Shown here piece after piece: positions 11,957-64,000 of a stretch of DNA of 64,000 nt. The stretch's first letter is position 1, and each line of letters begins with the position of its first letter. The stretch is from positions 62,001 through 126,000 of the forward strand of contig FCOH02000009.1 of assembly GCA_001544595.2 (NCBI GenBank), in the 5' to 3' direction. The notes beneath the pieces are model-generated. The model made no database searches. It was not told the origin of the DNA and was given only the letters and a program-made list of their open reading frames with translations. The translations under genes were made by a program, and so were the position numbers. The stretch is from Caballeronia peredens (GTDB lineage: Bacteria > Pseudomonadota > Gammaproteobacteria > Burkholderiales > Burkholderiaceae).

Positions 11957-12745
11957 TTAAGCAGTCGGCACTGTCGCCGCCGTCGTAGGTGTGACCTTTT
12001 GAGAATTCGTTTTGCGAGCAGACGCCTTCTTGGCCGCGACGGTTGTCTTTGCCGAAGCTTTCGTCGCAGCTTTCTTCACGCCCGCAGACCTCTTAGATGC
12101 CGCGACCTTATTAGCGCCAACCTTCGTGCTAGCAGCGCGGACCTTCGGCGCAGCTTTCGAGGTGGTCGCCTTGTGAGTCACGGGTGAATCCGATGTAGCG
12201 GCGGGGGCTTGTTCAATCAAAAACTTGGTTCGGTCCTTTGCGGAGGCCAGCCACTTGGGGGCAGGACCCCGACCGCTCCAGCTTGCTCCGGACTTCGGGT
12301 TTCTGTATTTTGCCGGCAGGGCACCTTTTGATTGCACTTCGCGAACCGGAACCTTTCTGCCGGACGCGCCGACCGTCTTTGCTGAAGACGCGGTATCTGG
12401 GCCATCGATAAGGAATTTCGTGCGGTCTTTCACGCCTTTAATCCAAGCCGGCGGCCGAGCATGTCCGCTCCAAGTCTCGCCGGTTTTGGGATTCAAGTAT
12501 TTTGCGGGCAGTTTTCCTTTTGGAGCAGTTGACGCCTTGGAGGCTCGACCGACTGCAGTGCGACCCCCTGCCTTTGCGTCTCTCTTCGCTTTCGCCTTGG
12601 CTTCAATGTCTGCAGTCGTAAGCCCGTGCTTCAGCATCAGTTCACGTATCTGGTCCACTGCGGCTTGAGCTTGTTTCGCAAGAATTGTCTCCGCTTGCGC
12701 CTGAAGCCTCTTCATACGGACCTGAATGTTCTCGAGAGTAGTCAT
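11957..12745 (-). CDS. H-NS-like nucleoid protein with two DNA-binding domains (copy 1)
   Basis: A 262-residue nucleoid-associated protein. Residues 1-50 form the H-NS oligomerisation region (MTTLENIQVRMKRLQAQAE ... LMLKHGLTTADIEAKAKAKR). Two H-NS C-terminal DNA-binding modules follow: YLNPKTGETWSGHARPPAWI (about 82-101) and YRNPKSGASWSGRGPAPKWL (about 145-164), each ending in KDRTKFLI. Residues about 185-262 are a Lys/Ala-rich histone-H1-like tail. A usual H-NS has one DNA-binding module and about 100-135 residues. The ATG at 12745 follows GGAGAAC. A paralogue of the same architecture lies at 49487-50299 on the same strand. Confidence 0.9.
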   Translation of the reverse strand: MTTLENIQVRMKRLQAQAETILAKQAQAAVDQIRELMLKHGLTTADIEAKAKAKRDAKAGGRTAVGRASKASTAPKGKLPAKYLNPKTGETWSGHARPPAWIKGVKDRTKFLIDGPDTASSAKTVGASGRKVPVREVQSKGALPAKYRNPKSGASWSGRGPAPKWLASAKDRTKFLIEQAPAATSDSPVTHKATTSKAAPKVRAASTKVGANKVAASKRSAGVKKAATKASAKTTVAAKKASARKTNSQKVTPTTAATVPTA

Positions 12746-13013
12746 GTTCTCCTCCGTGTGGTAGCAGAAGGAACTATGACACAGCATTCTTGAAAAGAGT
12801 ACCGAAACACCTTTGCTTGTATCAGAAGCTCAATCAGGTTGCTCCCCGAGGCGAGGAGACTTTTGAAGAGTGTGATACGGGACGGAGGGGCAGCCACGGA
12901 GAGGGGGCGGCGAAATTCGACTTCCAAAAATCGACACGCGGCGAAGAAGGCTGGCTGGCTCAAAGACGGACGCTCACCCGACCGCAATCAGACCAGCCTT
13001 CTTAGCTCGAAGA

Positions 13014-49486: not shown

Positions 49487-50299
49487 TCACGCAGATGCAG
49501 CTCTCACTGCGTCAAGTGCCGCCGCTGTCGCTGCGGTCGTAGGCGCGACCTTGCGCGGAGTCTTTTTGCGAGCAGTAACCGTTTTTGCAGTGACGGTTGA
49601 CTTTGCCGAAGCCTTCGTCGCGGCCTTCTTCACGCCTGCAGACTTCTTGGATGCCACCGCCTCCTTGGCGCCAACCTTCTTGGTCGCAGCGCGGACCTTC
49701 GGTGCGGCGTTCGACGGGCTCGATTCGTGAGTCGCCGACGAATCTGCCGGAGCGGACGATACCTGTTCAATCAAAAACTTGGTCCGGTCTTTGGCGGAGG
49801 CCAGCCATCTCGGAGCAGGGCCGCGACCGCTCCATGTAGCTCCGGACTTCGGGTCACCATATTTCGCAGGCAACGCACCTGTTGATTGCACTTTGCGAAC
49901 CGGGGTTTTGCCGCCGCCTGCGCCGACCGTCTTTGTTGAAGACGCGGTACCGGCGCCGTCAAGGAGGAATTTCGTCCGGTCTTTCACGTCTTTAATCCAA
50001 GCGGGCGGTCGAGCATGCCCGCTCCAAGTCTCGCCGGTTTTTGGATTCAAGTATTTTGCGGGCAGCTTTCCTTTGGTAGCGGCGAGTGTCTTAAGGCCTC
50101 GACTGGCGGCAGTGCGGCCGCTTGCCTTTGCGTCTCTCTTCGCTTTCGCCTTAGCTTCGATGTCGGCGGTGGTCAACCCGTGCTTCAGCATCAATTTGCG
50201 AATCTGGTCGACCGCGGATTGTGCGTTCTTGGCCAGGAGGGCTTCCGCTTGTGCTTGCAGTTTTTTCACCCGAGCCTGAATGTTCTCGAGGGTCGTCAT
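49487..50299 (-). CDS. H-NS-like nucleoid protein with two DNA-binding domains (copy 2)
   Basis: A 270-residue paralogue of the protein at 11957-12745. The N-terminal oligomerisation segment (MTTLENIQARVKKLQAQAE ... LMLKHGLTTADIEAKAKAKR) is nearly identical. Two DNA-binding modules follow: YLNPKTGETWSGHARPPAWI (about residues 82-101) and YGDPKSGATWSGRGPAPRWL. The second has GD in place of RN at the start of the motif. The tail is Lys/Ala-rich. A ribosome site (GGAGGTGA) precedes the ATG. It sits at the left edge of the defence island, where an H-NS protein could silence horizontally acquired DNA; that link is inference. Confidence 0.9.
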   Translation of the reverse strand: MTTLENIQARVKKLQAQAEALLAKNAQSAVDQIRKLMLKHGLTTADIEAKAKAKRDAKASGRTAASRGLKTLAATKGKLPAKYLNPKTGETWSGHARPPAWIKDVKDRTKFLLDGAGTASSTKTVGAGGGKTPVRKVQSTGALPAKYGDPKSGATWSGRGPAPRWLASAKDRTKFLIEQVSSAPADSSATHESSPSNAAPKVRAATKKVGAKEAVASKKSAGVKKAATKASAKSTVTAKTVTARKKTPRKVAPTTAATAAALDAVRAASA

Positions 50300-50921
50300 G
50301 TTCACCTCCAACTGGTAACGCAATGAACTATGACCTAAGCGGCGCTACGATAGTACGGGAATTATCTAAGCGTAGTCATCGATGTAGGAGAATCGAGCGT
50401 TTTCGCAAGAGACGAGTTCACAACAGCGGAAGAATGAGGGTTGGCCCCTGGACTAACGACATGCCGACAATATGGTCGCCCGCTGAGAAAGTCATCACTT
50501 TCCCTCAAGTTCTGGGTTAGTGTGCCGATATAGCCCGGGTGGTATCCGCCAGCGCAATCAAGGATACCCCCCGTGAAACGTTGGCTTCCAAAGCTCTCCC
50601 CGGCTCGTCGGGGTCATTGGCCAATCGCGCCAGCGCGTCGCTAGACGAGGCTTGGGGCGACTTGGGCTCCCAGCGCCCAAATCGTGACTTCGCGCAGTCT
50701 CGGTTAGTCGGCGCGCGCTTGCCGCACTTGCTCTAATTCAGAAAATTTCTCCTTCGTTAAAATCTTAAAACCACCAAAAACGCCAACGAAAGCAGTATTA
50801 TTTGGGACCTGACAGCGCCCCGGACGAGGTCGCTGTGAACGAGAGAGGTCACCGTGAGCTGTCGTGCAGATGCATCACGGGGGCAGGATGTTTAAATTGA
50901 GAATAAAACTGGGCCCAGCAC
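50300..50921. other. Gap at the left edge of the defence island
   Basis: About 620 bp. At about 50735-50805 the composition turns AT-rich, and a TATTAT hexamer (50796-50801) may be the -10 of the promoter for the ABC-3C operon. No gene, tRNA or integrase was recognised. Confidence 0.4.
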
Positions 50922-52136
50922 GTGGCACAAGAGAAAAGCTTCGCCGATACAACCAGTGCTGACGATAAAAGTATCGGGTTTGACTACCAGTACTATTACT
51001 TCCTTCATCGCATCCTGAATCTAGGCGTCGGGCAAAGCGTTGGCCTCGAGATTTTGGACGACGTACACACTGAGCTAGACGCCAGCTTCATCGTTCTCTT
51101 TCAGCTTAAGCATACTGTTCGCACCAGTGCATCCGGCCTCCCCGTCGCCTTAAAGGAACTTGATTCGGACCTCTGGAAGACTCTTTACAACTGGGCGAGG
51201 ATAATCGGCGATGTCGCTGAAAGGCGTGCCACGGTCCCGGCACAGTTGAAGTTCGTCGACAAAGCAGAGTTTCATCTCGTATCGAATAAGTCCCATAGCA
51301 AGAGGAATCACTTCCTTGCCGCGCTAATCGACTTCCAGGGCGGCACGATAGAGTTTTCCGAAATCCGCGACTGCATCTTGGCCCTGCAAGGGAAAACGAC
51401 GGATGCTGAGATACAAAAGTACATCGCTGCAGTCGTGGATTTGGACGATTCGGTGCTGCAGAAATACTTGAGTAACATTCGATTCGAGCTCGGCCTTGAC
51501 GACATCATCGGGCTAGTCAAGCGCTCAATTGCAGAAACATTCATTGACGACGGGAAGATTGATTCGACTTTCGAGCGGCTCGACTCAAATATTCGCGAAG
51601 ACAACTTTATTGCTATCAAGAAAGGCGAAAAGATTGTTATCAGCTTCGAGGATTTCAGAAAGCGCTACTGGAAGATATTTGACGACGCACGTAGCAAGAA
51701 GCTTGTGCAGTATCCCTTCAAGCCGGAATTGCCGAACGATATATTCGACCAGCGTTTCATCCGCCGATTGATGGATATTTCCGTCTTATCCGCTTCCGAT
51801 GTTGAAAGTGCCGTGAAGTATACGACGCTGAAACTTCAAATCGCCAAGTATCTTGAAAAATGGGTGCAAGAAGGCTCTCTCGTTAGTGCCGACGTCTCGG
51901 ACTTGCATGACGACGTTATCACGCAATGGGAGAATGAGTTCATTCATGCGTTTGAGGGCTACGAAACCGACGAGGCGATAAAGGGAGTTGCTAAGGAAAT
52001 ACTTCGGGTATTGAGACGCGTGTCCTTCAAGTTGGGCGAAAGTAGCTTGAACATAATGCTTAGCAACGGCGAGCTGTATTACTTGTCGGACATGGGGCGC
52101 ATCGGGTGGCACAGAGATTGGGAGCAGCATGATTGA
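50922..52136 (+). CDS. ABC-3C system effector with REase-like N-terminal domain
   Basis: A 404-residue first gene of a three-gene operon. The N-terminus resembles DUF4297/PD-(D/E)xK nucleases: a helix (GFDYQYYYFLHRIL), then LEILDDVHTELD with acidic residues 46-47, and FQLKH with the Q61-x-K63 catalytic pair. The rest is alpha-helical and ends in the region that in ABC-three-component (ABC-3C) systems couples the effector to the ATPase. It is predicted to cut nucleic acid when the ATPase senses infection. The start is a GTG without a strong ribosome site. It overlaps the next gene by 8 nt, so the two are translationally coupled. Confidence 0.75.
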   Translation: MAQEKSFADTTSADDKSIGFDYQYYYFLHRILNLGVGQSVGLEILDDVHTELDASFIVLFQLKHTVRTSASGLPVALKELDSDLWKTLYNWARIIGDVAERRATVPAQLKFVDKAEFHLVSNKSHSKRNHFLAALIDFQGGTIEFSEIRDCILALQGKTTDAEIQKYIAAVVDLDDSVLQKYLSNIRFELGLDDIIGLVKRSIAETFIDDGKIDSTFERLDSNIREDNFIAIKKGEKIVISFEDFRKRYWKIFDDARSKKLVQYPFKPELPNDIFDQRFIRRLMDISVLSASDVESAVKYTTLKLQIAKYLEKWVQEGSLVSADVSDLHDDVITQWENEFIHAFEGYETDEAIKGVAKEILRVLRRVSFKLGESSLNIMLSNGELYYLSDMGRIGWHRDWEQHD

Positions 52137-52575
52137 ACGATGGTCCGGATACAACAACGTCGGAATTGGCGCCACAGCATTGTTGGCAGTTATGGCGCAC
52201 ACCCCTCGGTTGAGCCTCCCGAAAGCATTGCTGGTGATGCCCTTGGTCATGCACGACGCGACCGTGAAATACCTGGGCCACGGTGGCGTTGCATGGCGAG
52301 GCGCCGCAACACTTGCAGCTTCCCGGCCTGACCTGTTCTTCAATTTCGATTCGAGATTCGCCGAAAGTCTGGTCACGTCTGTGAACGCTATTCAACTGAT
52401 TATCGAAGCAGAGTACGTAAAGTTTGACGGCAAGCTTATTCTAGTCAACCCGGTGAAAATTGACCCAAGCTTCGGCAAGCGAGCGCAGCGGATAGCGAAG
52501 GCAGCTGAGCATATTGCCGCGCTGTTGAAAAGTCCGGTCGATGAACTATATTTGAACTTTCGGGTGAAGCTTTGA
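52129..52575 (+). CDS. ABC-3C system middle component
   Basis: A 148-residue helical protein of the three-component ABC system middle-component family. Typical blocks are NVGIGATALLAVMAHTPRLSLPKALLVMPLVMH and FDSRFAESLVTSVNAIQLII, and a late AQRIAKAAEHIAALL helix. It lies between effector and ATPase genes and is thought to bridge them physically. It overlaps its upstream neighbour by 8 nt and the downstream ATPase gene by 4 nt (TTGA), so all three products should be made in step. Confidence 0.82.
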   Translation: MIERWSGYNNVGIGATALLAVMAHTPRLSLPKALLVMPLVMHDATVKYLGHGGVAWRGAATLAASRPDLFFNFDSRFAESLVTSVNAIQLIIEAEYVKFDGKLILVNPVKIDPSFGKRAQRIAKAAEHIAALLKSPVDELYLNFRVKL

Positions 52576-54428
52576 AATTCGGATTTGATGCTATTATTTT
52601 GTGGTCGAAGACGGGTGAGCGCCGGTCTCTTGAGTTCCATCGCAATCGAGTCAATGTTCTTTCGGGTGGCAGTAAGACGGGCAAGAGCGCGTTGCTCGAC
52701 ATCATTGACTACTGCTTTCTTGCCAGCTCGCACAAGCTGCCCGACAGCATCATTAACGAGAATGTCGACTGGTACGGGCTCAAGTTCTATGTGAATGACA
52801 AGACGTTCGCGCTTGCGCGCCGGAGTCCCACTGGCAACAAGGTGGGGTCCGAGTATCACTTCTCGCCAAACGGGTTTGTACCGGATATTCCGGAGGACAA
52901 CATTCGTGAAGCTGACCTCCGGGAGCTTATTGAAAGCGAGTTTTCCATCGATGAGAAGGTGTCGATGCCATTTGGCGGAAAAGCGATAAAGAAGAACTCA
53001 AAGATTTCCTTTCGCTACTTTTTGCTGTTCAACACCATCTCGGAAGACATCATCATCAACAGCAAGACGTTCTTCGATAAGCAGGTCGAAGAGCGCTATC
53101 GGGAGGCTTTGCCGAGGATATTCGACATTGCGCTCGGAATCGACGACCTTGAGAACATCAGCGCTCGGGAGCAAAAAGAGCTGCTCGAGCGGGAACTGAG
53201 ACGGACGGAACGAAAGAACGCTCAGGTGCGCGCTGGGCGCTCGGATTTCGACGAGGAAGTCCGTGATATTGCAGTCAAGGCAGCAGAGTATGGGCTCTTC
53301 CAGGCAGACCCGAAGAGCCTCTCGCATGATGCTGTAAAGAACGCAATCAACTCGGCGGCTTCCGTTGATACCGGCAAAGCGCTAGACCGCTACGCCGAGG
53401 TGACGGCGCAGCTGTTCACGGTAGACCGGAGGCTTCGGAGGCTCAGTCAGTTCACGACGGAATACCGCGGCTACAAAGATACGTTGAAGAACGCTGAAGA
53501 TAGTCTGCTCCCCATCCAGCAGCTCCTTGCGCGGTCTACAGCGCTTGTAAAATCGGAGGTCTTCAGCGAACTCATAAGTACGCTTAAGTCGGACCTGCTG
53601 GAGGTGAAGAAGTCGACATCGCGGAGTCAGCCATTGACTGCTCAGATTAGCACCATGTCTCGGGAACTCCAGGCCGAGAAGGCAGCGTTAGAGAAGGAAT
53701 TGAGCGTCCTCCCGCAGGAGCCAGCATCATTCGCGTCTGAACGGGACAAATGGCTATTCATCGGAGAAGCGAAAGGGCGATTTCGGACGTTCGACTCGGT
53801 CAGCGGCCCCGCCGTCCTTCATCAAATTGCGGGGCCCACGGAGGACTCTCTCCAAGCGCAGATTGACGGTATCAACGTTCGTGATGTGGACGAGAAGCGG
53901 AGCGCAGTTATTTCTATGATTAACGAGATTGCGCAGGGATTGCTTGCGGATACACGCAATGCGCTGGCGAACTACGCGACCTACCTTACCGACTTTTCAT
54001 ACACCGAGAAGCGTCTGAGATTGCGCAAACCTCGTTCATCTCTGATTGAGAACGTTGGCAGCAGCTCGAACCACATGTTCTTGCATCTGCTGCAGTTCCT
54101 TGCGTTGCATGAGGTGGCGGTAAGCCACAAGTCTCCGTTCGTTCCAACCTTCCTCGTCATCGACCAGCCGAGTCGTCCGTACTACCCTAACAAGAAGGCT
54201 GACGATAAAGTTAAGCTTACGGACAGTGACAGCGAAGAGGTGGCAATTGCCTTCCAACTTCTCAATGACTTCATTGGACGCATGAACACAGAGTATGAGT
54301 CTGAGTTCCAGATAATTGTGTTCGAACACGTGCCGGCGGACACATTTGACGGCATGGAATTTGTGCACCTGCTGAAGCAGTTTCGCAATGGTGAGGCGCT
54401 GATTCCAAAGTCATGGCAACGAGGCTAA
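52572..54428 (+). CDS. ABC-3C system DUF3732 ABC ATPase
   Basis: A 618-residue SMC/RecN-like ATPase. Walker A is GGSKTGKSALLDIIDY (residues 32-47), as in DUF3732 proteins. A long alpha-helical, probably coiled-coil middle runs from about 195 to 460 (LLERELRRTERKNAQ ... LQAEKAALEKELSVL). The C-terminal Walker-B-like strand is FLVIDQPSRPYYP (about 525-537), with Gln in place of the usual Glu, which is normal for this family. The start is a TTG overlapping the middle-component stop codon. It is the predicted sensor/motor of the system. Confidence 0.88.
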   Translation: MKFGFDAIILWSKTGERRSLEFHRNRVNVLSGGSKTGKSALLDIIDYCFLASSHKLPDSIINENVDWYGLKFYVNDKTFALARRSPTGNKVGSEYHFSPNGFVPDIPEDNIREADLRELIESEFSIDEKVSMPFGGKAIKKNSKISFRYFLLFNTISEDIIINSKTFFDKQVEERYREALPRIFDIALGIDDLENISAREQKELLERELRRTERKNAQVRAGRSDFDEEVRDIAVKAAEYGLFQADPKSLSHDAVKNAINSAASVDTGKALDRYAEVTAQLFTVDRRLRRLSQFTTEYRGYKDTLKNAEDSLLPIQQLLARSTALVKSEVFSELISTLKSDLLEVKKSTSRSQPLTAQISTMSRELQAEKAALEKELSVLPQEPASFASERDKWLFIGEAKGRFRTFDSVSGPAVLHQIAGPTEDSLQAQIDGINVRDVDEKRSAVISMINEIAQGLLADTRNALANYATYLTDFSYTEKRLRLRKPRSSLIENVGSSSNHMFLHLLQFLALHEVAVSHKSPFVPTFLVIDQPSRPYYPNKKADDKVKLTDSDSEEVAIAFQLLNDFIGRMNTEYESEFQIIVFEHVPADTFDGMEFVHLLKQFRNGEALIPKSWQRG

Positions 54429-54521
54429 CGAAGCGAGCATGTCGGCTCGGCGTTGTTCGCTGCGCGCATGGAAGAAGCAACTAGCGTTGGCTTCGTTCAT
54501 TTCTTGTCTTGCGGATAGGTT

Positions 54522-56216
54522 ATGGCAGCATCCAAAAGCGGCAACAGGGGTCCGAAGTTCAGAGTGATGTTTCGACGTTCTGAGCCCACCGACGATGAGA
54601 TTCGTCCTTACACCGTTTTCGTCGTTCCGAGCGAAGGGGCGAGGACGGATTTTGGGTTTCGGACGCAGGTCGAACTGCATGTCGGGCGTCTTGACGACCT
54701 TGCGTCGATGGTTGTCAGCTCCTTTATCGGATTCATTCCCGCGTCGGCGGGCGGACCGAGCGACTTGAATGCACTGGAGTCATTGTTCGACTCCAATGGT
54801 GGTTCGGCCATCGACTCGAGCAAGGTAGGTGAGTTCTTCACCATGTTGCCTGCGCTGGACGATTACCGACGAGTTGTCGGTGTGCTGGGAACAGACATCG
54901 CCGCGCGGTTGCTGCTTGCAGTCAACGACATCGTAGCCCTGGGCGCATATGAGGCACGTTCCCCCCTGTTGAAGGCGGCGCCGGGCATGGAGGTGTTTCA
55001 GAAGTCCTTCCTGCGAACGTCGGAGTCGTTCTTCGCTTTCAAGAACGCCGGGCCAATCCTGCGAGGTACGCAGATGGAAGAGTTCGGGAACATGACGCAG
55101 CGCGTCGGGTTGCGCTTTTCGCTGGCTGGTAGCGAGCCCGAACGCCTTCTTGAATTCAATTTCGACCACGAGGCAGACTTACCGAAGCGAATCGCCGTTA
55201 TGATTGGGAAGAACGGCGTCGGAAAGAGCCTCGCGCTTGGGCAGATTGCGCGGTCAGCGTTAAGCGGGGACGACAAAGCGCTCATCGATTTGAGCAATCA
55301 GGGGCGTGTTCTTATCAATCGGCTCTTGGCGTTTGCACCGACGAACGAGTCAGCATCGGTTTTCCCGGCCGACCGACGCAAGAATGCCCGAGTATGGTAC
55401 CGAAGGTTCGCGTTGAACCGCGTTGGCCGGTCACGACGAGGAAACGGTGTGACGGACACTGTGCTTCAAGTCGCCCGTTCCGAAGAGAGGTTAGGGGGCG
55501 ACACGAGATGGCGCCTGTTCGTATCAGCGCTTACGGCAATTTCCGGATGGGAGCATTTGGCTCTACCACGCACGGACAAAACGGCGCCGCCGGTGCAGAT
55601 AGCGACGCTCCTGGACGGCCGGGAAGAAGCGGATGCGCTTGAGCTATTTGCGTCCATTGACTCGAATAGCGACCCCGTCCGGATGGTTGCCGACAAGGGG
55701 TATCTCCTCAGTAGCGGCGAAATCTCGTTTCTGCGCTTCGCAGCGCAAGCAAGTATGTTCATCGAGAATGGTTCACTGCTCCTACTCGACGAGCCAGAGA
55801 CGCACTTGCATCCGAATTTTATAAGTCAGTTCGTGGCACTGCTCGACGGGCTGCTTTCCCGTACGGGGTCTGCGGCTGTGATTGCAACGCACTCGGCTTA
55901 CTTCGTCCGGGAGGTGTTTCGAGAGCAAGTGACAGTGCTACGCACCGACGAGCAAGGGCTCCTGACGACAAGCCCGCTTCGGCTGCAAACCTTCGGTGCG
56001 GATGTTGGCTCGATTTCCTATTTCGTTTTTGGCGAGGATGAGCCTTCACGGCTCGCCGCGGAGGTCGAGGACCGATTGCTGAAGCGGTATCAGAGCTGGG
56101 AGCAACTCTATGGGCGTTACAAGCACGAGTTGTCTTCCGAGATGCTTGGGTCGCTGAGAGTGGCGTTGGAGTCAGAGAAGGACGAGCCCGCCGCGGAGCC
56201 CGACGCAGGTGAATAA
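54522..56216 (+). CDS. ABC/OLD-like ATPase of an ATPase-HNH pair
   Basis: A 564-residue ATPase. Walker A is IGKNGVGKS (residues about 228-236), the ABC signature is LSSGEISFLRF (about 396), Walker B is LLLLDEPETHLHP (about 420-432), and the H-loop is ATHS (about 456). The preceding 220 residues have no motif I recognise, and this differs from PtuA of Septu, where Walker A is near the N-terminus. The C-terminal 110 residues are charged and helical. It overlaps the HNH nuclease gene by 8 nt. The pair is predicted to be an antiphage unit in which ATPase activity gates the nuclease. Confidence 0.85.
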   Translation: MAASKSGNRGPKFRVMFRRSEPTDDEIRPYTVFVVPSEGARTDFGFRTQVELHVGRLDDLASMVVSSFIGFIPASAGGPSDLNALESLFDSNGGSAIDSSKVGEFFTMLPALDDYRRVVGVLGTDIAARLLLAVNDIVALGAYEARSPLLKAAPGMEVFQKSFLRTSESFFAFKNAGPILRGTQMEEFGNMTQRVGLRFSLAGSEPERLLEFNFDHEADLPKRIAVMIGKNGVGKSLALGQIARSALSGDDKALIDLSNQGRVLINRLLAFAPTNESASVFPADRRKNARVWYRRFALNRVGRSRRGNGVTDTVLQVARSEERLGGDTRWRLFVSALTAISGWEHLALPRTDKTAPPVQIATLLDGREEADALELFASIDSNSDPVRMVADKGYLLSSGEISFLRFAAQASMFIENGSLLLLDEPETHLHPNFISQFVALLDGLLSRTGSAAVIATHSAYFVREVFREQVTVLRTDEQGLLTTSPLRLQTFGADVGSISYFVFGEDEPSRLAAEVEDRLLKRYQSWEQLYGRYKHELSSEMLGSLRVALESEKDEPAAEPDAGE

Positions 56217-57075
56217 GCTTCCCAGGCCCGACAACAACGATGCAGCTGCCTTCCAGAACGTGGCATCCGATGCCCGGCTAGCGAGCTATCCAAATCTGCA
56301 ACCAATCGTGCCGGCGGTTCTGGCAGGATATGCGCAATACGCCGCGTCGAATGGCAATGTCGCGAGAATTGCGGGTGTGCCGATAAGCGGAGCAGAGAAG
56401 GCTTTGCTTCTCGGGCACTACAACCGGCCACCGAGAGCGCTCGCCCACATCGCGAACCTACGAAAGGACGGCGAGCACCGCGTGTGTCCCATGTGCGGGT
56501 CGCTTCACAGCGGCACGTTGGACCACATCCTGCCAAAAGAGACGCATGCTGCATTCGCCGTCTTCTCGTTGAATCTGGTCCCAGCCTGTAAGTGCAATAC
56601 TCGGCGTGGCACGACGACGACCGGCGCAGGCGTAGACGAGCGCATTCTGCATCCGTATTTTGACGAATGCCTGTCGGACCGGTTGTTGGCCGCACGCTTC
56701 GATGACTTGGGTCGCGTTCCCTCGATTAGCTTGCAGATTCTGCTCCCGCCCAACCATCCGGAATTCTCGGCAGTTTCATTTCACGTCGAACGAATCGTTG
56801 GGAAGACTTCCGTGCTGGAGTATTTGATTGAGCGCTGGACCCATCTCTGCCAGAAGCCCTCGCGAATAGTTCGTGCCTTGGCGAATGAGCCTCAAACCGC
56901 AGAAGCACTTCAAGAGATAGTGCTGAGCGACTTGCAGTTGACAGACGAGACTCATGGCGGCAAAAACAACTGGAATTCTCTTTTCCTTGCGGGCTTGCTG
57001 GATGCACATGTGCTGCAATGGCTTACAGAGCGGTTCACGACACCCGGACGCGTTTCAGGGACGCCGCTTGTTTAA
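56209..57075 (+). CDS. HNH endonuclease, PtuB-like
   Basis: A 288-residue nuclease. The HNH fold is clear: zinc knuckle CPMC (Cys93, Cys96), catalytic LDHILPK (Asp105-His106), SLNLVPAC with Asn122, and second knuckle CKCN (Cys127, Cys129, Asn130). The spacing matches PtuB-type HNH proteins. The remaining C-terminal 150 residues are of unknown fold and may bind the ATPase. The start is a GTG in the last codons of the ATPase gene, an arrangement implying translational coupling. It is probably toxic unless held by its partner. Confidence 0.82.
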   Translation: MNKLPRPDNNDAAAFQNVASDARLASYPNLQPIVPAVLAGYAQYAASNGNVARIAGVPISGAEKALLLGHYNRPPRALAHIANLRKDGEHRVCPMCGSLHSGTLDHILPKETHAAFAVFSLNLVPACKCNTRRGTTTTGAGVDERILHPYFDECLSDRLLAARFDDLGRVPSISLQILLPPNHPEFSAVSFHVERIVGKTSVLEYLIERWTHLCQKPSRIVRALANEPQTAEALQEIVLSDLQLTDETHGGKNNWNSLFLAGLLDAHVLQWLTERFTTPGRVSGTPLV

Positions 57076-57306
57076 TTACAATAAAGACCAAAGCGCAATC
57101 GCTCGTCGGAGAAGGTGACAGCAAGGTTGTCGACCAAGCGGGCGAAGCTCCAAAGCGCCTCCGCTGGTCTCAGTGACGCGCGCAGCCATGGCGATTTGCA
57201 CGGATTCGCGCGTTGCGCGAGGCATACACAATCAACGACATCAATAAGGACGAAGGCTCCGGCTGTTCGGAGCTTAGTGGGCAAAAACTGATAACAAGAA
57301 TGAACT

Positions 57307-58221
57307 ATGAACAACATACTGATGGATATCCCGCCACCGTCGTACTGGCAGGAGTTTGAGCGACTCACACTTGATGTCTGCCGCATCCGATGGAAAGATG
57401 ACTACGCGGAGCGACACGGTCGGGACGGACAGTCTCAGTCGGGAGTCGACGTGTATGGCCACAACCATGCTTCATCGTGTGAGCTCAGTGGAGTGCAATG
57501 TAAGAAGCGCAAGAATAAGTCGAAAGGCCTGGAGGTACCGGCTCATTCACTGTCTACTGAGGAAATCGACGAGGAAATTTCGGCGGCATCGAGCTTTCAG
57601 CCGCACCTTCGTCGATTCATCATTGCAACCACGGGGGAGCGGGACGAGAAGATGCAGGGGCACGTCCGGCTTTTGAACGCTGCGAATAAGCATCCGTTTC
57701 AAGTTGCTCTTTGGTTTTGGGACGACTACGTCGATTTCCTCAATTGCAACGAGAACGTGATGTACAAATACTTCTCCTCGGTTCTCCGGTATCGCAAAAC
57801 CTATTCGGAAGACGAGCATTACCTCAGAATGCTTGCCTTAGCGTTCGACAGACCCGCGATTCGTACCACATTTCGTTTGGAGAACCGCGCAACAGATTTT
57901 ATTGCTGCGATTTCCGGTTTGCAGCAGGCCGTAAAAACAGGAACGCTGAAGGACCGCGATGGCCACACAATAGATGAGGCGAGGCGACCATCTAAGCTCG
58001 GTCCCGAACTCAAAGCGATTGGTAGGCTGCTGACGGACGTTAGAAATCTTGCGACTGACGGGTTGGTTCGCGGCGCGATTGTCGACCATGGTACGGTCAT
58101 CGAGATACGAGAGGAATCACTTCAGCACAGGTTGAACGCCTTGCGCAGAGATGTCGTTGACACTTTGAACATTCTTCTTCACCACGCGAACATCGAACCG
58201 GTGGAAGTCGAGAATTTCTGA
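57307..58221 (+). CDS. Stand-alone Mrr-like restriction endonuclease
   Basis: A 304-residue protein. Residues about 13-140 form a restriction-endonuclease-like domain: WQEFERLTLDVCRIRW (first helix), SGVDVYG with Asp48, and GVQCKK with Gln64-x-Lys66, followed by RRFIIATTGERDEKM (a core strand and helix). This is the D...QxK variant of the PD-(D/E)xK site. The C-terminal half (LRMLALAFDRPAIRTTFRLE onward) is helical and unassigned; it may sense a target. It has its own upstream gap of 231 bp, so it is probably an independent module. No methyltransferase is nearby, so it may be type IV-like. Confidence 0.75.
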   Translation: MNNILMDIPPPSYWQEFERLTLDVCRIRWKDDYAERHGRDGQSQSGVDVYGHNHASSCELSGVQCKKRKNKSKGLEVPAHSLSTEEIDEEISAASSFQPHLRRFIIATTGERDEKMQGHVRLLNAANKHPFQVALWFWDDYVDFLNCNENVMYKYFSSVLRYRKTYSEDEHYLRMLALAFDRPAIRTTFRLENRATDFIAAISGLQQAVKTGTLKDRDGHTIDEARRPSKLGPELKAIGRLLTDVRNLATDGLVRGAIVDHGTVIEIREESLQHRLNALRRDVVDTLNILLHHANIEPVEVENF

Positions 58222-58378
58222 AAGGGAAACATGTCGCCGGAAGTGCTAGGCATGTTTGGGTTGGGGCCTCAATGACGCCAACCTCGAAGGCGATATGTAG
58301 CACGCTCTTTGCGCATCCAACGATGCTTATTGTCTCGTCGCGCCTATGAGGTCAATTCGGTTTCGCATTTTATCCAAC

Positions 58379-58400
58379 AGAGGACATAAAAACGTCCTCT
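58379..58400. terminator. Stem-loop after the Mrr-like gene
   Basis: AGAGGAC and GTCCTCT form a perfect 7-bp stem around an 8-nt loop about 160 nt after the stop codon. No T-run follows, so termination is doubtful. Confidence 0.3.
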
Positions 58401-58534
58401 AATCAGATTTGCGCTTTTACGGCCTGGTGTCTAAGCTAAAGCGCGGGTCGCGTTGACACGCTGTGGCGCGGCTGGAGTTTGTCCGTCAGGTTACCTGTGA
58501 GTGGCGAAGCGAGCGAGTCAATCAGGAGGAAGCG

Positions 58535-58930
58535 ATGAGGATTAGCGGAACGAGGCCGGACCAGTACACGTGGCCTGTGACGGGAGAGGAACATCGAAAG
58601 CTCATGAAGGCTTTGGGAGCGGCGTTTGGTCACTCCAGTCCTTCAGCGGCGGAGCGGTACGTTCGTACAATTGACCAGCTACCGCGCGACCCTCTGTCAA
58701 TGGAACGCTTCGCTCGTGAGATGAAAGCATTTCACATCTGGCTGCAATTGTTGACCAACCCAAAACGTATGCACGAAATCATGGTCGTGGGCGGCGACAC
58801 CGGCGTAGAGGATAGCGTGGCGGATATGGCACCGGGGCTGCTCAAGCAGGCGAGTGACCTGTCGTGCCCCGACTTCTTGAACACTCACCTGGCTGCGCTA
58901 GACGCAAATCTCCGCAGCTTGAATCGCTAG
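58535..58930 (+). CDS. Unrecognised 131-residue protein
   Basis: The ATG at 58535 is preceded by AGGAGG at ideal distance, so translation is likely; a longer frame from 58463 is not needed. The protein is soluble and helical (AAERYVRTIDQLPRDPLSMERFAREMKAFHIWLQLL). A glycine-containing segment near the middle reads MVVGGDTGVEDSVADMAPGLL. I do not recognise a family. It lies between the Mrr-like nuclease and the reverse transcriptase and ends in a strong hairpin, so it appears to be its own transcription unit. Confidence 0.65.
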   Translation: MRISGTRPDQYTWPVTGEEHRKLMKALGAAFGHSSPSAAERYVRTIDQLPRDPLSMERFAREMKAFHIWLQLLTNPKRMHEIMVVGGDTGVEDSVADMAPGLLKQASDLSCPDFLNTHLAALDANLRSLNR

Positions 58931-58963
58931 CGGTTAAGCGAGAAACGACCAAACACTCGAGAG

Positions 58964-58991
58964 CGACCGCTGAGGCCCAGCGGTCGATTTT
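58964..58991 (+). terminator. Terminator after the 131-residue protein gene
   Basis: CGACCGCTG and CAGCGGTCG pair perfectly around a 5-nt loop (58964-58986) and are followed by ATTTT. It begins 34 nt after the stop codon and separates that gene from the reverse transcriptase. Confidence 0.8.
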
Positions 58992-59305
58992 GCTTTGGGA
59001 CCGCCTTTCGCTGCCAGCGTCTAGCTCGCGGAACGATGCTGTTGAAATCGCAAACAACAGTCGGGCGGACCTCGAATTGGTCGGAAGACGAGACCGTCGA
59101 ACGAGTTGCTCGCTGTTCGCGCCGTGCGGGATTGGGTAGGTCCAAACATCACTAAAAAGCTTGAGCGCCTCGACCATTTAGCTACCTCACCTTCCAACTC
59201 GGGCGGAATTGACGCCGAAGCCCTTACCCTCAGAAAGGCGTAAGCGCCGCACCGTCACGGTCTTGCGGTTAATATTGGTGACCACCAAACTCAAGAGTTC
59301 GCTTG
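58992..59305 (+). other. Leader region of the reverse transcriptase gene
   Basis: About 310 bp without a gene, downstream of a terminator and directly before the reverse transcriptase start. Retrons and some DRT systems encode a non-coding RNA here. I see no clear retron msr/msd inverted repeats, but the position justifies noting it as a candidate RNA region. Confidence 0.3.
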
Positions 59306-60961
59306 ATGATTTTTGACGACAATCGCTGGGTGTACGAGGGTCTCTCGCGGTTCAACTTTTTCCCCAACCAAAAGGCGCCTATCGGCGAACTGCCTCCATG
59401 TATTACGAGTCGCCAATTGACGCCAGAGGTGGCTGAGTTAGTGCTCGCCGAAGAAGGGCCAAAAGCGCGAGACGCTACCGTCGGATACGACGAGGTCTCG
59501 TACTTGATGACAAGGCATGACAACATTCCGCGGCGTCTCTCGCTCATTCATCCCGTTCCTTATCTCCGAATGGCAGGTCACATCTGGACGCATTGGAACG
59601 AGATTTCGTCGGCGGTCGGGAGCGAAAACAGTGCAATCAAACCCGAAAGACACGATGACGCTCGCATCCTGATAATGAACTACGAGGACGTGCTATCAAA
59701 GTCTCGGCATATCCTGTCAGCAAGTTTTGGGAAGCGCTTTAAGGTTGAAACGGATATTGCGAGCTGTTTCAACAGCATTTATTCGCACTCTATCCCTTGG
59801 GCGGTCGTGGGCTTTGAGGCCGAGAAAGCACGACTTCGTGGAGAAGGAGTTTCTCACTGGAGCGACCGGCTCGATTTAATGCAGCGAACCGCGAAGCGGA
59901 AAGAAACCGTCGGAGTATCGATTGGACCTGGAACATCAAGTATTATCGTTGAGATAATCCTCGGAAAGGTCGATGCCCGTCTTCGGGAAAAAGGCTACGA
60001 ATTTCGCCGGTTCATCGATGACTACATTTGTTTCGCCGAGACGCACGATAAGGCGCAAAGCTTTTTGTCGGACGTCGGTCGCTTTCTTTCGGACTACAGG
60101 CTGCATTTGAACTTGCAGAAGACATCTATAGTGGAGTTGCCGCAACCACTGAGCGCATCTTGGGTTACCGAATTGAGCAACGCGCTCGAAAGTCTTATGT
60201 TGGTCGCGAGTGAGCAAGAGGATGCAAAAATCTTCGCTAACGGTGCAACGCAATATCTTGACCTTGCCATAAAATTAAATCGAGAGACTCGCGATGGCAG
60301 CATTTTGAAGTACGCTTTTGGCTCGCTCATCGCTTGGATTCACGAAAACGCGCTATATGATGTTTCGGAGTATCTAATCAATCTAGCTTGGCACTATCCG
60401 GCGTTGCTTCCTTATCTCGACTCGCTTCACGATAAGTTTCCGGAGAGTCTGAACTCATATGAGCCACAATTGAATGCAATAATCATTGAGAACGCGAAGC
60501 ATCGACGTTCTGATGGCATGGCTTGGCCACTTCATTTAATGCGTAAGACGGGTCTTAAGCTTACCAGCGAAACCATTGAAAGCATTCTGGCTTCTCGTGA
60601 TTGCGTCGCCTACACCTTGCTGTTCGAGATGCATCAAGCGGACGACCAAATCATTGCTTTTGCGAAGGACCTTCTCGACCAAGATTATCTTGAGCGTGAC
60701 GAGTATTGGTTGTTGCTTTACCAACTGGCCTATCACGATGTGATTCCTTTGCATGAGAATGAAAAGGGCTTCGCGGTAATGCTTGAGCACAAGGTGAATT
60801 TCGTGCCTGCTGACGACACGAAGACCACCACAGAGGCATATTGCGATTATCTGAATAACCCGTTTTGGGAGGAGGGCGAGGGACCGCTTTCGATGAGCGA
60901 TTGGATTCTGGAGCAGGCGAAACTGGGGCGAGAGGTTAAAGACGACCCGTTAGGCTCATGA
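59306..60961 (+). CDS. Defence-type reverse transcriptase with helical C-terminal domain
   Basis: A 551-residue RNA-directed DNA polymerase. RT motif A is FKVETDIASCFNSIYSHSIPWA (catalytic Asp150), the motif B-like turn is SIGPGTSS (205-212), and motif C is RRFIDDYICF with Asp238-Asp239. The IDD box and the HSIPWA block are typical of Abi/UG (DRT) reverse transcriptases rather than group II introns. Residues about 290-551 are alpha-helical, like the repeat domains of AbiA/AbiK-type proteins. No maturase or nuclease domain is seen. I cannot assign it to a named DRT class. ATG at 59306 directly follows an in-frame TTG. Confidence 0.85.
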   Translation: MIFDDNRWVYEGLSRFNFFPNQKAPIGELPPCITSRQLTPEVAELVLAEEGPKARDATVGYDEVSYLMTRHDNIPRRLSLIHPVPYLRMAGHIWTHWNEISSAVGSENSAIKPERHDDARILIMNYEDVLSKSRHILSASFGKRFKVETDIASCFNSIYSHSIPWAVVGFEAEKARLRGEGVSHWSDRLDLMQRTAKRKETVGVSIGPGTSSIIVEIILGKVDARLREKGYEFRRFIDDYICFAETHDKAQSFLSDVGRFLSDYRLHLNLQKTSIVELPQPLSASWVTELSNALESLMLVASEQEDAKIFANGATQYLDLAIKLNRETRDGSILKYAFGSLIAWIHENALYDVSEYLINLAWHYPALLPYLDSLHDKFPESLNSYEPQLNAIIIENAKHRRSDGMAWPLHLMRKTGLKLTSETIESILASRDCVAYTLLFEMHQADDQIIAFAKDLLDQDYLERDEYWLLLYQLAYHDVIPLHENEKGFAVMLEHKVNFVPADDTKTTTEAYCDYLNNPFWEEGEGPLSMSDWILEQAKLGREVKDDPLGS

Positions 60962-60983: not shown

Positions 60984-61253
60984 TCACTCCCACTTCCCCT
61001 TAGCGAGCTTGTCCTTCAGGTCGCTGATTTTTCGCTGAGCCTCGGGCCGCGGCGTTGCCAACACTTCGATGGGAATGGTGACGCCAAGGATTTTCGCGAG
61101 ATTGGAAACATAGGGGCGGCGCTCCCCTGGAATGTCTGCTCGGGCCCGTTTGACCCGTTTGATGCCACAAACTGAAATCAGATACTCAAGCGTTCTCTGG
61201 TCACGGCCGGACTCCACGATTACGTCCAGGCTCTGCAGGTCTTCTGGTCGCAT
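60984..61253 (-). CDS. Small unrecognised protein convergent with the RT gene
   Basis: An 89-residue protein starting MRPEDLQSLDVIVESGRDQR. Its charged helical body reads YLISVCGIKRVKRARADIPG, then RRPYVSNLAKILGVTIP, and ends in a basic KISDLKDKLAKGKWE. The YVSNLAKILGVTIP stretch looks like the recognition part of a small HTH, so DNA binding is possible. It converges on the RT gene with 22 bp between stop codons. The start at 61253 is preferred to a longer frame because the upstream extension is not protein-like. Family not recognised. Confidence 0.5.
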   Translation of the reverse strand: MRPEDLQSLDVIVESGRDQRTLEYLISVCGIKRVKRARADIPGERRPYVSNLAKILGVTIPIEVLATPRPEAQRKISDLKDKLAKGKWE

Positions 61254-61531
61254 GGTAGGCTCGCTGCGAATGGTTGGGCACCAATCGGTTACAGGACGGG
61301 CGGCTTGGTGCCAGCGGGGTCTCGTAGGGGCACAAAACTTTCGCAAATGGACTTGACGACATAAGCTGGGTAGGCGAAGTGCGTAGCCCGACGGACAAGA
61401 GTCAGACGACAACGTATCATACTCATCCACTTGGTTCGTGGCGGCCAAGTCGTTTTTATTGAGCCATTGATGTGACGATTTGACTTCACAGTGTCCTTTT
61501 TGTCGCCGCCGCGCTTACGTGGGGGAGTTCG

Positions 61532-62971
61532 ATGATTGAGGTCAGCAACAGCGTCCCGGTTCGCACCGTCTTCGCTTCGTTGAAAAGTGTCAAGCCGTTT
61601 GAACGCCTCTCGGAACTTGAAGCGCACTTCGGGACTTCGCTGCGAGCTACGGGCGGCGTACCTGTTCGCCTCGCTTTGGCCGCTGCCAGAGATGGAGCAC
61701 GAGCGGTTCAGCGCGACCTGTTTGATTTTGCGCCGGCGGCGTCCGTCATCAGTCTCGTACATGAACTGGGCCCTGAAGAATCGCCTCAGATAGCCGAAGC
61801 GCTCGCTGATGTTATTCCCAACTTCGAGTGTTTTCGGTGGAACATCTCGTCTTTGGGGCAGTATCAACAAGTGGTGAACAGATTCAACGAGGATGCCCTA
61901 ATTCCCGTGTTGAATCTCTCACTCTCTAGTGACCAGAATGTTGGTTGGGTAGACCCCCACGACGGTCTCGTTGATGTGGCGAGTAGTTCGTTTCGGCTGA
62001 CGCTACGGCATTACATTTCCCGCTCCCTGGATGTCCGACAACGACTTAGCGTTCTCATGGCTGCGGTCAGATATTTGCAAGTATTAGCTTTAGCTGGACT
62101 ATCGGAGGAGCAATATGGCTTTCAGCCTGGATGGAACATAATATCCGCGCTCATTGAGATGTTTGAAGAAGAGGACGTGCGCGAGTTGATTTACTTCGGC
62201 GCGTCGCAAACAGTTCTATTGAATGCTATCCAGTCATTGATGACTTCCGCAAACAGCTTAGAATTTGTCGGCGCTCTCGATTCTCCTCTTCTGCAACTCT
62301 TCTCTCCATCGACAATACCGGCGTTCTTCTCCAAGTTAAATAATCTCGTTAATCAGCCGAAGTTCTCGGGAACCGACGCAACAGTTGCAACTTGGCCTTG
62401 CTATGTGTGGTCGTGGAAGTTTGAATCTCGATTCCCTATTTGCGAGCCCGAATTCATGAGCTTGGTTCCGAAGAAATGTATGAAAGAATTCGAGGAAATG
62501 TCCGAGCTTAAGGAAAAGAAAATCGAGCGGTTTGGACGCAGCGTGACACATCTGGACGAGAGTCAGCAAGTAGTTGCTGCGAGCCCTAATATTTTTGTGC
62601 TCTTCGAACAATCTAGTACCTCAGAATATTCGGACGATACCTTTGGCTACGTTGAAAACGATAAGTTCGTATTCGCTGTCCTTTGGGTTCCAACCTCTGT
62701 ATTGAAAAACGCCGAGGATAGCGACATTTCGGTCTTAGTGTACGTGTCATTCCCCGAGCCAGAGTTAATTTCTATTCCTTATGCCGTCAGTTCCGAGCGG
62801 TTCGATTATGGCGGACGACACTGTCGTAAACTGAACATTCGTCTCAATTTTTCTGATTTTCTACGCACGCGGTCTTCGACGTCGCCGTCTGAAAAAGGTT
62901 ACCGCGTCAGCTTTGGTCTGATTATCGAGAAGAACAATGAGTTCTTATGCGCCGGCGATAACGCCATTTGA
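61532..62971 (+). CDS. Unrecognised 479-residue protein, first gene of a two-gene unit
   Basis: The start has a strong ribosome site (GGGGGAG). The N-terminal 150 residues look globular alpha/beta (VISLVHELGPEESPQIAEAL), the middle (about 165-300) is helical (SLDVRQRLSVLMAAVRYLQV), and the last 150 residues seem beta-rich (FVFAVLWVPTSVLKNAEDSD, then ISVLVYVSFPEPELIS). No transmembrane helix, Walker motif or nuclease motif is visible, and I do not recognise the family. Its end overlaps the hydrolase gene by 35 nt, which implies co-translation and a shared task. Base composition is AT-richer than the catabolic genes to the left. Confidence 0.7.
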   Translation: MIEVSNSVPVRTVFASLKSVKPFERLSELEAHFGTSLRATGGVPVRLALAAARDGARAVQRDLFDFAPAASVISLVHELGPEESPQIAEALADVIPNFECFRWNISSLGQYQQVVNRFNEDALIPVLNLSLSSDQNVGWVDPHDGLVDVASSSFRLTLRHYISRSLDVRQRLSVLMAAVRYLQVLALAGLSEEQYGFQPGWNIISALIEMFEEEDVRELIYFGASQTVLLNAIQSLMTSANSLEFVGALDSPLLQLFSPSTIPAFFSKLNNLVNQPKFSGTDATVATWPCYVWSWKFESRFPICEPEFMSLVPKKCMKEFEEMSELKEKKIERFGRSVTHLDESQQVVAASPNIFVLFEQSSTSEYSDDTFGYVENDKFVFAVLWVPTSVLKNAEDSDISVLVYVSFPEPELISIPYAVSSERFDYGGRHCRKLNIRLNFSDFLRTRSSTSPSEKGYRVSFGLIIEKNNEFLCAGDNAI

Positions 62972-63923
62972 CACGAATCTCACAGCAGTCAGCGGCAGCC
63001 CTCCAAGGCACGCGCTTGTGTTTGTGCATGGAATTTTATCCTCGCACGTTACGTTTCTGAAGGCATATAAGTACTTCAGACGCGTGTCGAAAAATCTCGG
63101 GACGGAGCTTGCGTATTTCGACTACGATTATCGACTTGGCTTAGTCGAAAACGGTAGAGCTCTGGGAACTGCGTTGAAGTCGAGGTACGGGCATGGAGAA
63201 ACAACGGTTTCTTTGGTTTGTCATAGTATGGGAGGTTTAATCGGTCGCCTGTCCATTCTTGCGAACGATTCTCCAATGCCATTTTTGCGAGCGTTATTCA
63301 TGCTAGGGACACCAAATCGTGGTGCCTTCCACTCTCGTCAACTCGACCCGCTCTTTGCTGCGATGCTAGAGAGTGGAATTCCCGCAAGAGCTGTCCAAAG
63401 GCGCGCTCGCGGCATATTAGAGTTGACGGATGCTTATTCCATATTAAACGGATTCGAAAGTAAGTCTAAGTTCGCTAACGATATCTTCTACATCTCGATA
63501 CCGGGTTGTTTCTTTCATGAAAGGCGCGCTATCTATAAAAGAAACGAGGTGCCGGAAAAACTTTTTTGGCTGGTTAACTTGACCGCAGCTCTGTCTGAGA
63601 GGCTTCCAATAATCTCCGTCCGGCTAAATCGTCCTCACGACGGGGTCGTTGAGCGGGTTAGCAATTCGTTGATACCGTGTGATTCAGGGCAGTGGTCTGA
63701 GAAAGCATCGAGTGTTAACTTTAGAGGCAATCCCGACCCTACCTATGTTCATGTGCAGCATAGGGTATGCGATGAACTCACCCATGGGCGAATACAGTCC
63801 TCATACCCGCTGCTGCGAATAATGTGGGAGATGATGCTCGCGGGTTCAATTTCCGGCTGGATTGACGAACTCACACCGGATGATTTCGGAAAATTGTTTT
63901 ATTGGACCGAAAATGCATCTTGA
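62937..63923 (+). CDS. Lipase-like alpha/beta hydrolase, second gene of the unit
   Basis: A 328-residue soluble serine hydrolase of the lipase/DUF676/PGAP1-like kind. The oxyanion strand is LVFVHGILSS (His31-Gly32), the nucleophile elbow is CHSMGG (Ser97), and the segment MLGTPNRG is the lid-region turn typical of lipases. Candidate acid and histidine are Asp in RPHDGVV (about residue 233) and His in HVQHRV or LTHG. It could hydrolyse lipid or other esters, so as a toxin it might damage membranes. The ATG lies inside the upstream gene (35-nt overlap). It ends before the window edge; nothing further is seen after 63923. Confidence 0.82.
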   Translation: MSSYAPAITPFDTNLTAVSGSPPRHALVFVHGILSSHVTFLKAYKYFRRVSKNLGTELAYFDYDYRLGLVENGRALGTALKSRYGHGETTVSLVCHSMGGLIGRLSILANDSPMPFLRALFMLGTPNRGAFHSRQLDPLFAAMLESGIPARAVQRRARGILELTDAYSILNGFESKSKFANDIFYISIPGCFFHERRAIYKRNEVPEKLFWLVNLTAALSERLPIISVRLNRPHDGVVERVSNSLIPCDSGQWSEKASSVNFRGNPDPTYVHVQHRVCDELTHGRIQSSYPLLRIMWEMMLAGSISGWIDELTPDDFGKLFYWTENAS

Positions 63924-64000
63924 ACTTGGTTGCTTCCTCCCAGTTCATTATTCGTAACGTACGCGACTTTGTTTCCCAGCGGCGAGTGGGGCCGCCCGCG

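What the first reader, a model, noticed from the sequence alone, without database searches (positions are those of the whole stretch)
61532..63923. Overlapping unknown protein plus lipase-like hydrolase: candidate undescribed defence unit
A 479-residue protein with no motif I recognise overlaps by 35 nt a serine hydrolase with a complete-looking CHSMGG site. They sit at the end of a run of known-type defence genes, are AT-rich, and share one strong ribosome site at the front. A sensor plus a membrane- or ester-attacking effector is a known logic in antiphage biology, but I know no named system with this pairing. The defence role is inference from context.
Basis: partly seen in the sequence, partly recalled or inferred. 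Interest (0 to 1): 0.8.

Follow-up and report, generated by a model that had tools for sequence, protein, structure and literature searches.

The report
Orphan hydrolase pair in mobile-element cassette
Two overlapping bacterial genes, one of unknown kind and one encoding an apparently intact serine hydrolase, sit as a small bounded unit at the tip of a mobile island whose end carries antiphage genes, so they are a good but unproven candidate for a new two-gene defence system.

Summary
Gene A (61532-62971, 479 aa) overlaps gene B (62937-63923, 328 aa) by 35 nt. B is an alpha/beta hydrolase with nucleophile S97 and acid D235; the histidine is probably H283. A matches nothing in Pfam, PADLOC, NCBIfam, PHROGs or PDB sequences. 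No relative of A was found; B has only distant hydrolase-core relatives.

The surroundings add most. The pair lies at the right end of a ~115.5-kb island inserted inside a FemAB-like gene. A 13-base tip sequence occurs exactly twice in the 6.73-Mb genome: just before A, and after B at the island/host junction. A-B is thus bounded as a 3.18-kb unit whose only long genes are A and B. One sister element in the same genus sits at the same site with the same terminus but other cargo beside it: a retron-type RT, Hachiman and two candidate defence genes.

Best reading: a two-gene defence-type module, B an effector hitting the cell's own lipids or acyl groups, A its sensor or restraint. Position and bounded unit are shown; defence and both roles are inferred. 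Without homologues, co-occurrence and defence enrichment could not be tested. A's structure prediction was poor (pLDDT 43); B's could not be run.

The parts
61532..62971 (+). Gene A, 479 aa, unknown protein; partner of B (proposed sensor/restraint)
   Evidence: ORF; not chance; no family match; poor AlphaFold model, helix-rich 1-340 then strand-rich 345-478 (low confidence)
62937..63923 (+). Gene B, 328 aa, alpha/beta hydrolase; HG 31-32, S97, D235, probable H283
   Evidence: family, below Pfam cut-offs; triad columns; 67 and 85 place the histidine differently
61353..61365 (+). First copy of the element tip TTGACGACATAAG; second copy lies outside the window at C44:126534-126546
   Evidence: exactly two matches in the whole genome; 0.07-0.2 expected
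61032..61320 (.). First copy of the element's right-end sequence, repeated after B at C44:126097-126384 (84% identity)
60984..61253 (-). Small 89-aa ORF of the right-end sequence; the copy after B is frameshifted; 66% identical copy at the same place in G431
61366..61531 (.). Spacer between first tip and gene A, with an SD-like GGGGGAG before A
   Evidence: matches nothing else in the pieces searched
63924..64000 (.). Start of the stretch that leads from B to the second right-end copy and the island/host junction (continues outside the window to C44:126546)
50922..60961 (+). Neighbouring defence genes inside the same island (Lamassu, PDC-M01, DRT4); context, not part of the pair

Best explanation
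A-B is a self-contained two-gene module, carried as a 3.18-kb bounded unit at the cargo tip of a site-specific mobile island, and most likely works as an abortive-infection-type antiphage system. Shown: the genes overlap; B has the hydrolase nucleophile and acid and no export signal by eye; the pair is bounded by two identical element tips; the same slot holds defence genes in one sister element. Inferred: B stays in the cytoplasm and, once released or activated, cuts ester or acyl bonds of the cell's own lipids (or acyl-proteins), damaging the membrane and stopping phage growth; A, translated first and in coupled amounts, binds B, keeps it inactive and responds to infection.
For: Overlap of 35 nt. 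Nucleophile, oxyanion HG and acid conserved with relatives. Island of ~115.5 kb inside a FemAB-like gene. Exact 13-base tip on both sides of A-B and nowhere else in the genome. Sister element at the same site with RT, HamA, HamB, PDC-S26 and PDC-S14 next to the terminus: 5 of 6 ORFs scanned, chosen from 14 ORF rows listed there. Defence genes also lie left of the pair and at C44:31446-34022 (PDC-M62A/B). Among B's better-scoring relatives are hydrolase domains joined to CHAT and to a trypsin-like protease, and alpha/beta hydrolases are predicted lipid-attacking effectors in published conflict systems (passages).
Against: No homologue of the pair, so no co-occurrence or enrichment statistics. 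PADLOC finds nothing for A or B, and of 22 aligned hydrolases only one has a weak match (LmuA, 0.0072). Most of B's other relatives are ordinary lipase-like proteins without such fusions. About half of the island in the window is metabolic-looking (MFS, RND efflux, LysR; labels by eye), so island cargo is not defence alone. The sister comparison is n = 1. Nothing shows that A and B interact.
Confidence: 0.45

Rival explanations
1. Toxin-antitoxin or addiction module: B is a self-toxic hydrolase and A only its inhibitor, stabilising the island; any phage effect is incidental.
For: Upstream partner overlapping the enzyme gene, two genes only, on a mobile element. Addiction modules are reported as frequent cargo of GInt islands (passage).
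Against: A is large (479 aa) for an antitoxin; the slot in the sister element holds defence genes rather than addiction genes.
Confidence: 0.25
2. Non-defence cargo: B is an intracellular lipase/esterase of lipid or xenobiotic metabolism and A an accessory or folding partner.
For: B's Pfam matches are general hydrolase families; much of the island is metabolic-looking; two other ORFs near the left part of the island had no PADLOC match.
Against: No curated metabolic family reaches its cut-off; position between defence genes and the element tip.
Confidence: 0.17
3. The unit is not a cassette: the repeated terminus arose by recombination between related islands or by decay of a nested element, and A-B's isolation between the tips is accidental.
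For: The terminus copies are only 84% identical; no left-end-like sequence follows the first tip; copy 1 diverges from copy 2 and the G431 terminus between the small ORF and the 13-base tip; the small ORF next to B is frameshifted.
Against: Exact 13-base tip at both ends, same strand, nowhere else in the genome.
Confidence: 0.4
4. Antibacterial lipase effector with an immunity or adaptor partner (type VI secretion-like).
For: Lipase effectors with partners are a known kind (recalled).
Against: No secretion-system gene was seen by eye among the neighbouring ORFs; A has no signal peptide by eye, unlike the periplasmic immunity proteins recalled for such effectors.
Confidence: 0.05

Closest known systems
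Predicted alpha/beta-hydrolase effectors of bacterial conflict systems (PMC7159879, PMC8195603; passages read)
   Same: Alpha/beta hydrolase proposed to attack membrane lipids, encoded beside or fused to other conflict proteins
   Different: There the hydrolase goes with caspase-like proteins, MoxR-vWA, GTPase or Death-like domains; A shows no match to any Pfam domain
Lamassu variants with a hydrolase effector (name 'Lamassu-Hydrolase' seen in a search listing only, PMC12447246; otherwise recalled)
   Same: Hydrolase as effector of an antiphage system
   Different: B is not with LmuB/LmuC: the window's Lamassu has its own LmuA and lies ~7 kb away, on the other side of the first element tip
CBASS phospholipase effectors such as CapV/CapE (recalled)
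   Same: Works-like: intracellular lipid hydrolase that kills the infected cell
   Different: Those are patatin-type and come with a nucleotide cyclase (recalled); none among the neighbours here
GInt islands (PMC5385486; abstract, outline and passages) and Gamma-Mobile-Trio elements (second-hand passage; original not held), for the island
   Same: Block of recombinase-type genes at one end, variable cargo including restriction or defence genes, short other end, site-specific insertion
   Different: Target is a FemAB-like gene; element carries a FemAB-like paralogue and a RecD2-like gene; no NCBIfam match for the first three genes

Membership tests
Known or candidate defence system in PADLOC-DB 2.0.0 (2023) | Match to a PADLOC protein model | tested here: not met
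   0 families for A and B at E <= 0.1
Alpha/beta hydrolase superfamily (B) | Nucleophile elbow, oxyanion HG, acid and histidine | tested here: met
   S97, H31-G32, D235 and H283 invariant in 9 sequences; S97 also in 6 and 22. The histidine is H283 but column H272 and no invariant histidine after S97, so its identity is probable, not certain
A named Pfam/NCBIfam lipase family (B) | Score above the curated cut-off | tested here: not met
   Best DUF7379 23 bits of 33 and DUF676 19.6 of 20.3; NCBIfam none at E <= 1
Two-gene antiphage system | Protection against phage needing both genes | not testable with these tools
   Needs plaque assays
Two-gene antiphage system | The two genes co-occur across genomes and are enriched near defence genes | tested here: inconclusive
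   No second copy found, so no statistics; one locus only
Lamassu with hydrolase effector | Hydrolase encoded with LmuB/LmuC | tested here: not met
   Lamassu at 50922-54428 has its own LmuA; B lies at 62937
GInt / Gamma-Mobile-Trio (island) | Their specific recombinase operon | tested here: inconclusive
   First gene has a weak Phage_integrase match (E 0.011); no NCBIfam match for genes 1-3; reference sequences of those operons were not compared

The most novel reading that the evidence does not exclude
A-B is the first known member of a two-gene antiphage type, a protein of wholly new kind controlling a cytoplasmic alpha/beta hydrolase, and the host island grows by adding defence modules at its right tip, each bounded by the same short tip sequence, somewhat as integrons add cassettes.
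Probability: 0.22. Interest if true: 0.72.

Novelty: new variant of a known kind. Interest (0 to 1): 0.48.

Why it matters
If right, it gives a small, complete, cloneable two-gene unit with an easily mutated catalytic serine and a partner protein of unknown kind. The border sequence also gives a handle for finding further unknown defence modules in the same terminal slot of related islands. If A-B proves to be an addiction or metabolic pair, the island tip still stands as a described place where defence cargo sits in two related elements.

Tried and rejected
Relatives of A: 399 Burkholderiales (own copy plus G309, rejected because the matching frame is antisense to a gene that looks like methionyl-tRNA synthetase); 58 genus genomes (23); 398 Pseudomonadota (24); 398 of the family (76); 355 of the class (77); plasmids, phages; viral and genome contigs by exact 8-residue words (14, 15; 1 and 37 stretches matched a word, none a relative). 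The samples overlap, and the contig scans see only close relatives.

Relatives of B: in the genome samples only stretches of about 50-180 residues at 26-45% identity (23, 24, 76, 77); none in viral contigs by single protein (25); 1 locus in viral contigs (65) and 38 in genome contigs (68) with alignments; one plasmid record at 29% over half of B (11). No A-like ORF in the DNA held around them: 0 matches at E <= 10 in the 39 loci; in the 116 loci the only match at E <= 1 was again the G309 locus. Too distant for a co-occurrence test.

Structure: A alone gave pLDDT 42.7, pTM 0.28 (62), so no fold search was made. B with alignment A3 could not be started (queue full in 86, 89, 92, 96, 99, 102, 105, 108, 110, 112).

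Rejected: B as effector of the neighbouring Lamassu; the 89-aa terminal ORF as a third component (it belongs to the terminus and is frameshifted next to B, 57); filing the island as GInt or Gamma-Mobile-Trio (52). The promoter/terminator scan was near its shuffles (4 against 2.6, 5 against 3.9). Nine paper searches were answered. Those on hydrolase or lipase antiphage systems listed nothing that I recognised as this pair, seen as listings only; the library lacks most subscription journals.

Mended from my notes: the sister insertion in G431 was noted as about 94 kb; the two junctions put it near 107 kb. 'No TM' for A was too strong: one stretch (172-190) reaches a Kyte-Doolittle mean of 1.79 (93).

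Full report
What is there. The window is positions 62001-126000 of contig C44 of a 6.73-Mb genome. The genus is Caballeronia: a 314-aa gene of a same-genus genome (G408) is identical in DNA to one of Caballeronia fortuita. Gene A (61532-62971) and gene B (62937-63923) are as described and overlap by 35 nt. Their frames are far longer than in simulations of this sequence. A has no match in Pfam even at E 10, nor in PADLOC, NCBIfam, PHROGs or PDB sequences. The AlphaFold model of A is too poor to use (mean pLDDT 42.7); at most it hints at a helix-rich first two thirds and a strand-rich end.

Gene B. B matches alpha/beta hydrolase families weakly (DUF7379 8.4e-5, DUF676 6.8e-4, PGAP1 1.2e-3; all below the curated cut-offs) and the solved esterase BlEst2 (2.1e-4). 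The oxyanion HG (31-32), S97, D235 and H283 are invariant in a 9-sequence alignment. In other alignments S97 stays invariant, but the histidine falls on H272 (6 sequences) or on no invariant column (22 sequences), so nucleophile and acid are well supported and the histidine is probable. B shows no strong hydrophobic segment (maximum 19-residue mean 1.45) and no signal peptide by eye; A has one borderline stretch (1.79 at 172-190). Among B's better-scoring relatives are hydrolase domains joined to a CHAT protease (L064) and to a trypsin-like protease (L069). Related hydrolases have been predicted as membrane-lipid-attacking effectors of bacterial conflict systems (PMC8195603, PMC7159879; passages). 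Many other relatives are small lipase-like proteins without such fusions, and of 22 aligned hydrolases only one has even a weak PADLOC match.

Rarity. Besides its own copy no true relative of A was found in samples of 399, 58, 398, 398 and 355 genomes (the samples overlap; the G309 hit is antisense to another gene), in plasmids or phages, or in viral and genome contigs by exact 8-residue words. B has no close relative in the same searches, the best being 26-45% over parts of the core. This is a small share of known genomes, so the pair may be rare rather than unique. It blocks the co-occurrence test.

The island. The FemAB-like gene (PF04339) next to the pair has a match in 55 of 58 genus genomes. 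In the closest relative its upstream flank is one piece with the gene; in this genome that flank ends at C44:11002 and the rest of the gene begins at about C44:126542, so ~115.5 kb is inserted inside it, with no clear duplication of the target. Of 20 relatives' stretches fetched beside this gene (7.2-20 kb each), none holds the window's defence genes. The C-terminal part of the gene has an open frame of 300 aa here and 299 aa in G431, against 382 or more elsewhere, apart from two fragments in the incomplete genome G424. The left end of the insertion holds a five-gene block: 635 aa with a weak phage-integrase match, 783 aa, 207 aa, a RecD2-like protein, and a tyrosine-recombinase-like protein (last label by eye). 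An intact FemAB-like paralogue follows.

The bounded unit. The sequence just before A (61032-61320) is repeated after B at C44:126097-126384 with 84% identity, and with it a small 89-aa minus-strand ORF, frameshifted in the copy next to B. The tip TTGACGACATAAG stands at 61353-61365 and at C44:126534-126546, where the island meets the host gene; these are its only two exact occurrences in the genome, against 0.07-0.2 expected. The 3181 nt between them hold A, B and the second terminus copy. Against a simple cassette: the first copy diverges from the other two termini between the small ORF and the tip, and nothing like the island's left end follows the first tip. Cassette, decayed nested element and recombination product all remain possible.

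The sister element. G431, same genus, has an insertion of roughly 107 kb at the same place, with the same terminus (small ORF 66% identical, tip GTTGACGACATAAG) and the same five-gene block at 29-36% identity. A and B are absent from the whole of G431; DRT4, LmuA, LmuB and PDC-M01A/B are absent from the two end regions searched. Next to its terminus lie a retron-type RT (1.4e-17), HamA (7.1e-116), HamB (1.5e-236), PDC-S26 (2.7e-24) and PDC-S14 (2.5e-40): 5 of the 6 ORFs scanned, which I chose from 14 rows listed, several of them overlapping on opposite strands or part of the terminus and host gene. So in the only comparison available the slot of A-B is a defence slot.

How it most likely works. 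I favour a two-gene abortive-infection-type module: B a lipase/esterase-type effector acting inside its own cell, A translated first and in step with B as its restraint and sensor. Shown: overlap, nucleophile and acid, island position, bounded unit, defence genes in the sister slot. Inferred: phage sensing, lipids as the target, A's role, A-B contact. An addiction module would look the same in sequence and is the main rival.

Novelty. The logic, a partner plus a hydrolase effector, is known; this pairing and protein A are not in the libraries searched. I call it a new variant of a known kind, with function open.

Noticed in passing
G000 C44:11003-126541 (window is C44:62001-126000): A ~115.5-kb island splits a FemAB-like gene and carries an intact FemAB-like paralogue (C44:19864-21057, minus) near its left end, perhaps replacing the gene it breaks; G431 shows the same arrangement.
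   Followed up: partly
C44:31446-34022 (L050:11446-14022, minus): A further two-gene AAA plus HNH-type pair matching PDC-M62A (3.5e-33) and PDC-M62B (2.8e-54), so defence cargo is not only at the right end.
   Followed up: no
window 57307-58221: 304-aa protein without Pfam or PADLOC match but matching phrog_8991 of unknown function (8.9e-24), between PDC-M01 and DRT4.
   Followed up: no
window 58463-58930: 155-aa ORF without any family match next to DRT4.
   Followed up: no
window 11957-12787 and 49487-50323, both minus: Two similar alanine/lysine-rich H-NS-like proteins (label recalled, similarity by eye), the second just left of the defence run.
   Followed up: no
L064:357-3491: Verrucomicrobial 1045-aa protein joining an alpha/beta hydrolase, a peptidase M17 N-terminal domain and a CHAT protease, a possible single-chain conflict protein.
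   Followed up: no
L069:7629-10232 and similar loci L067, L068, L070-L073: Marivita-type proteins of 849-906 aa with a B-like hydrolase core; the one scanned (L069) also has a trypsin-like domain.
   Followed up: no
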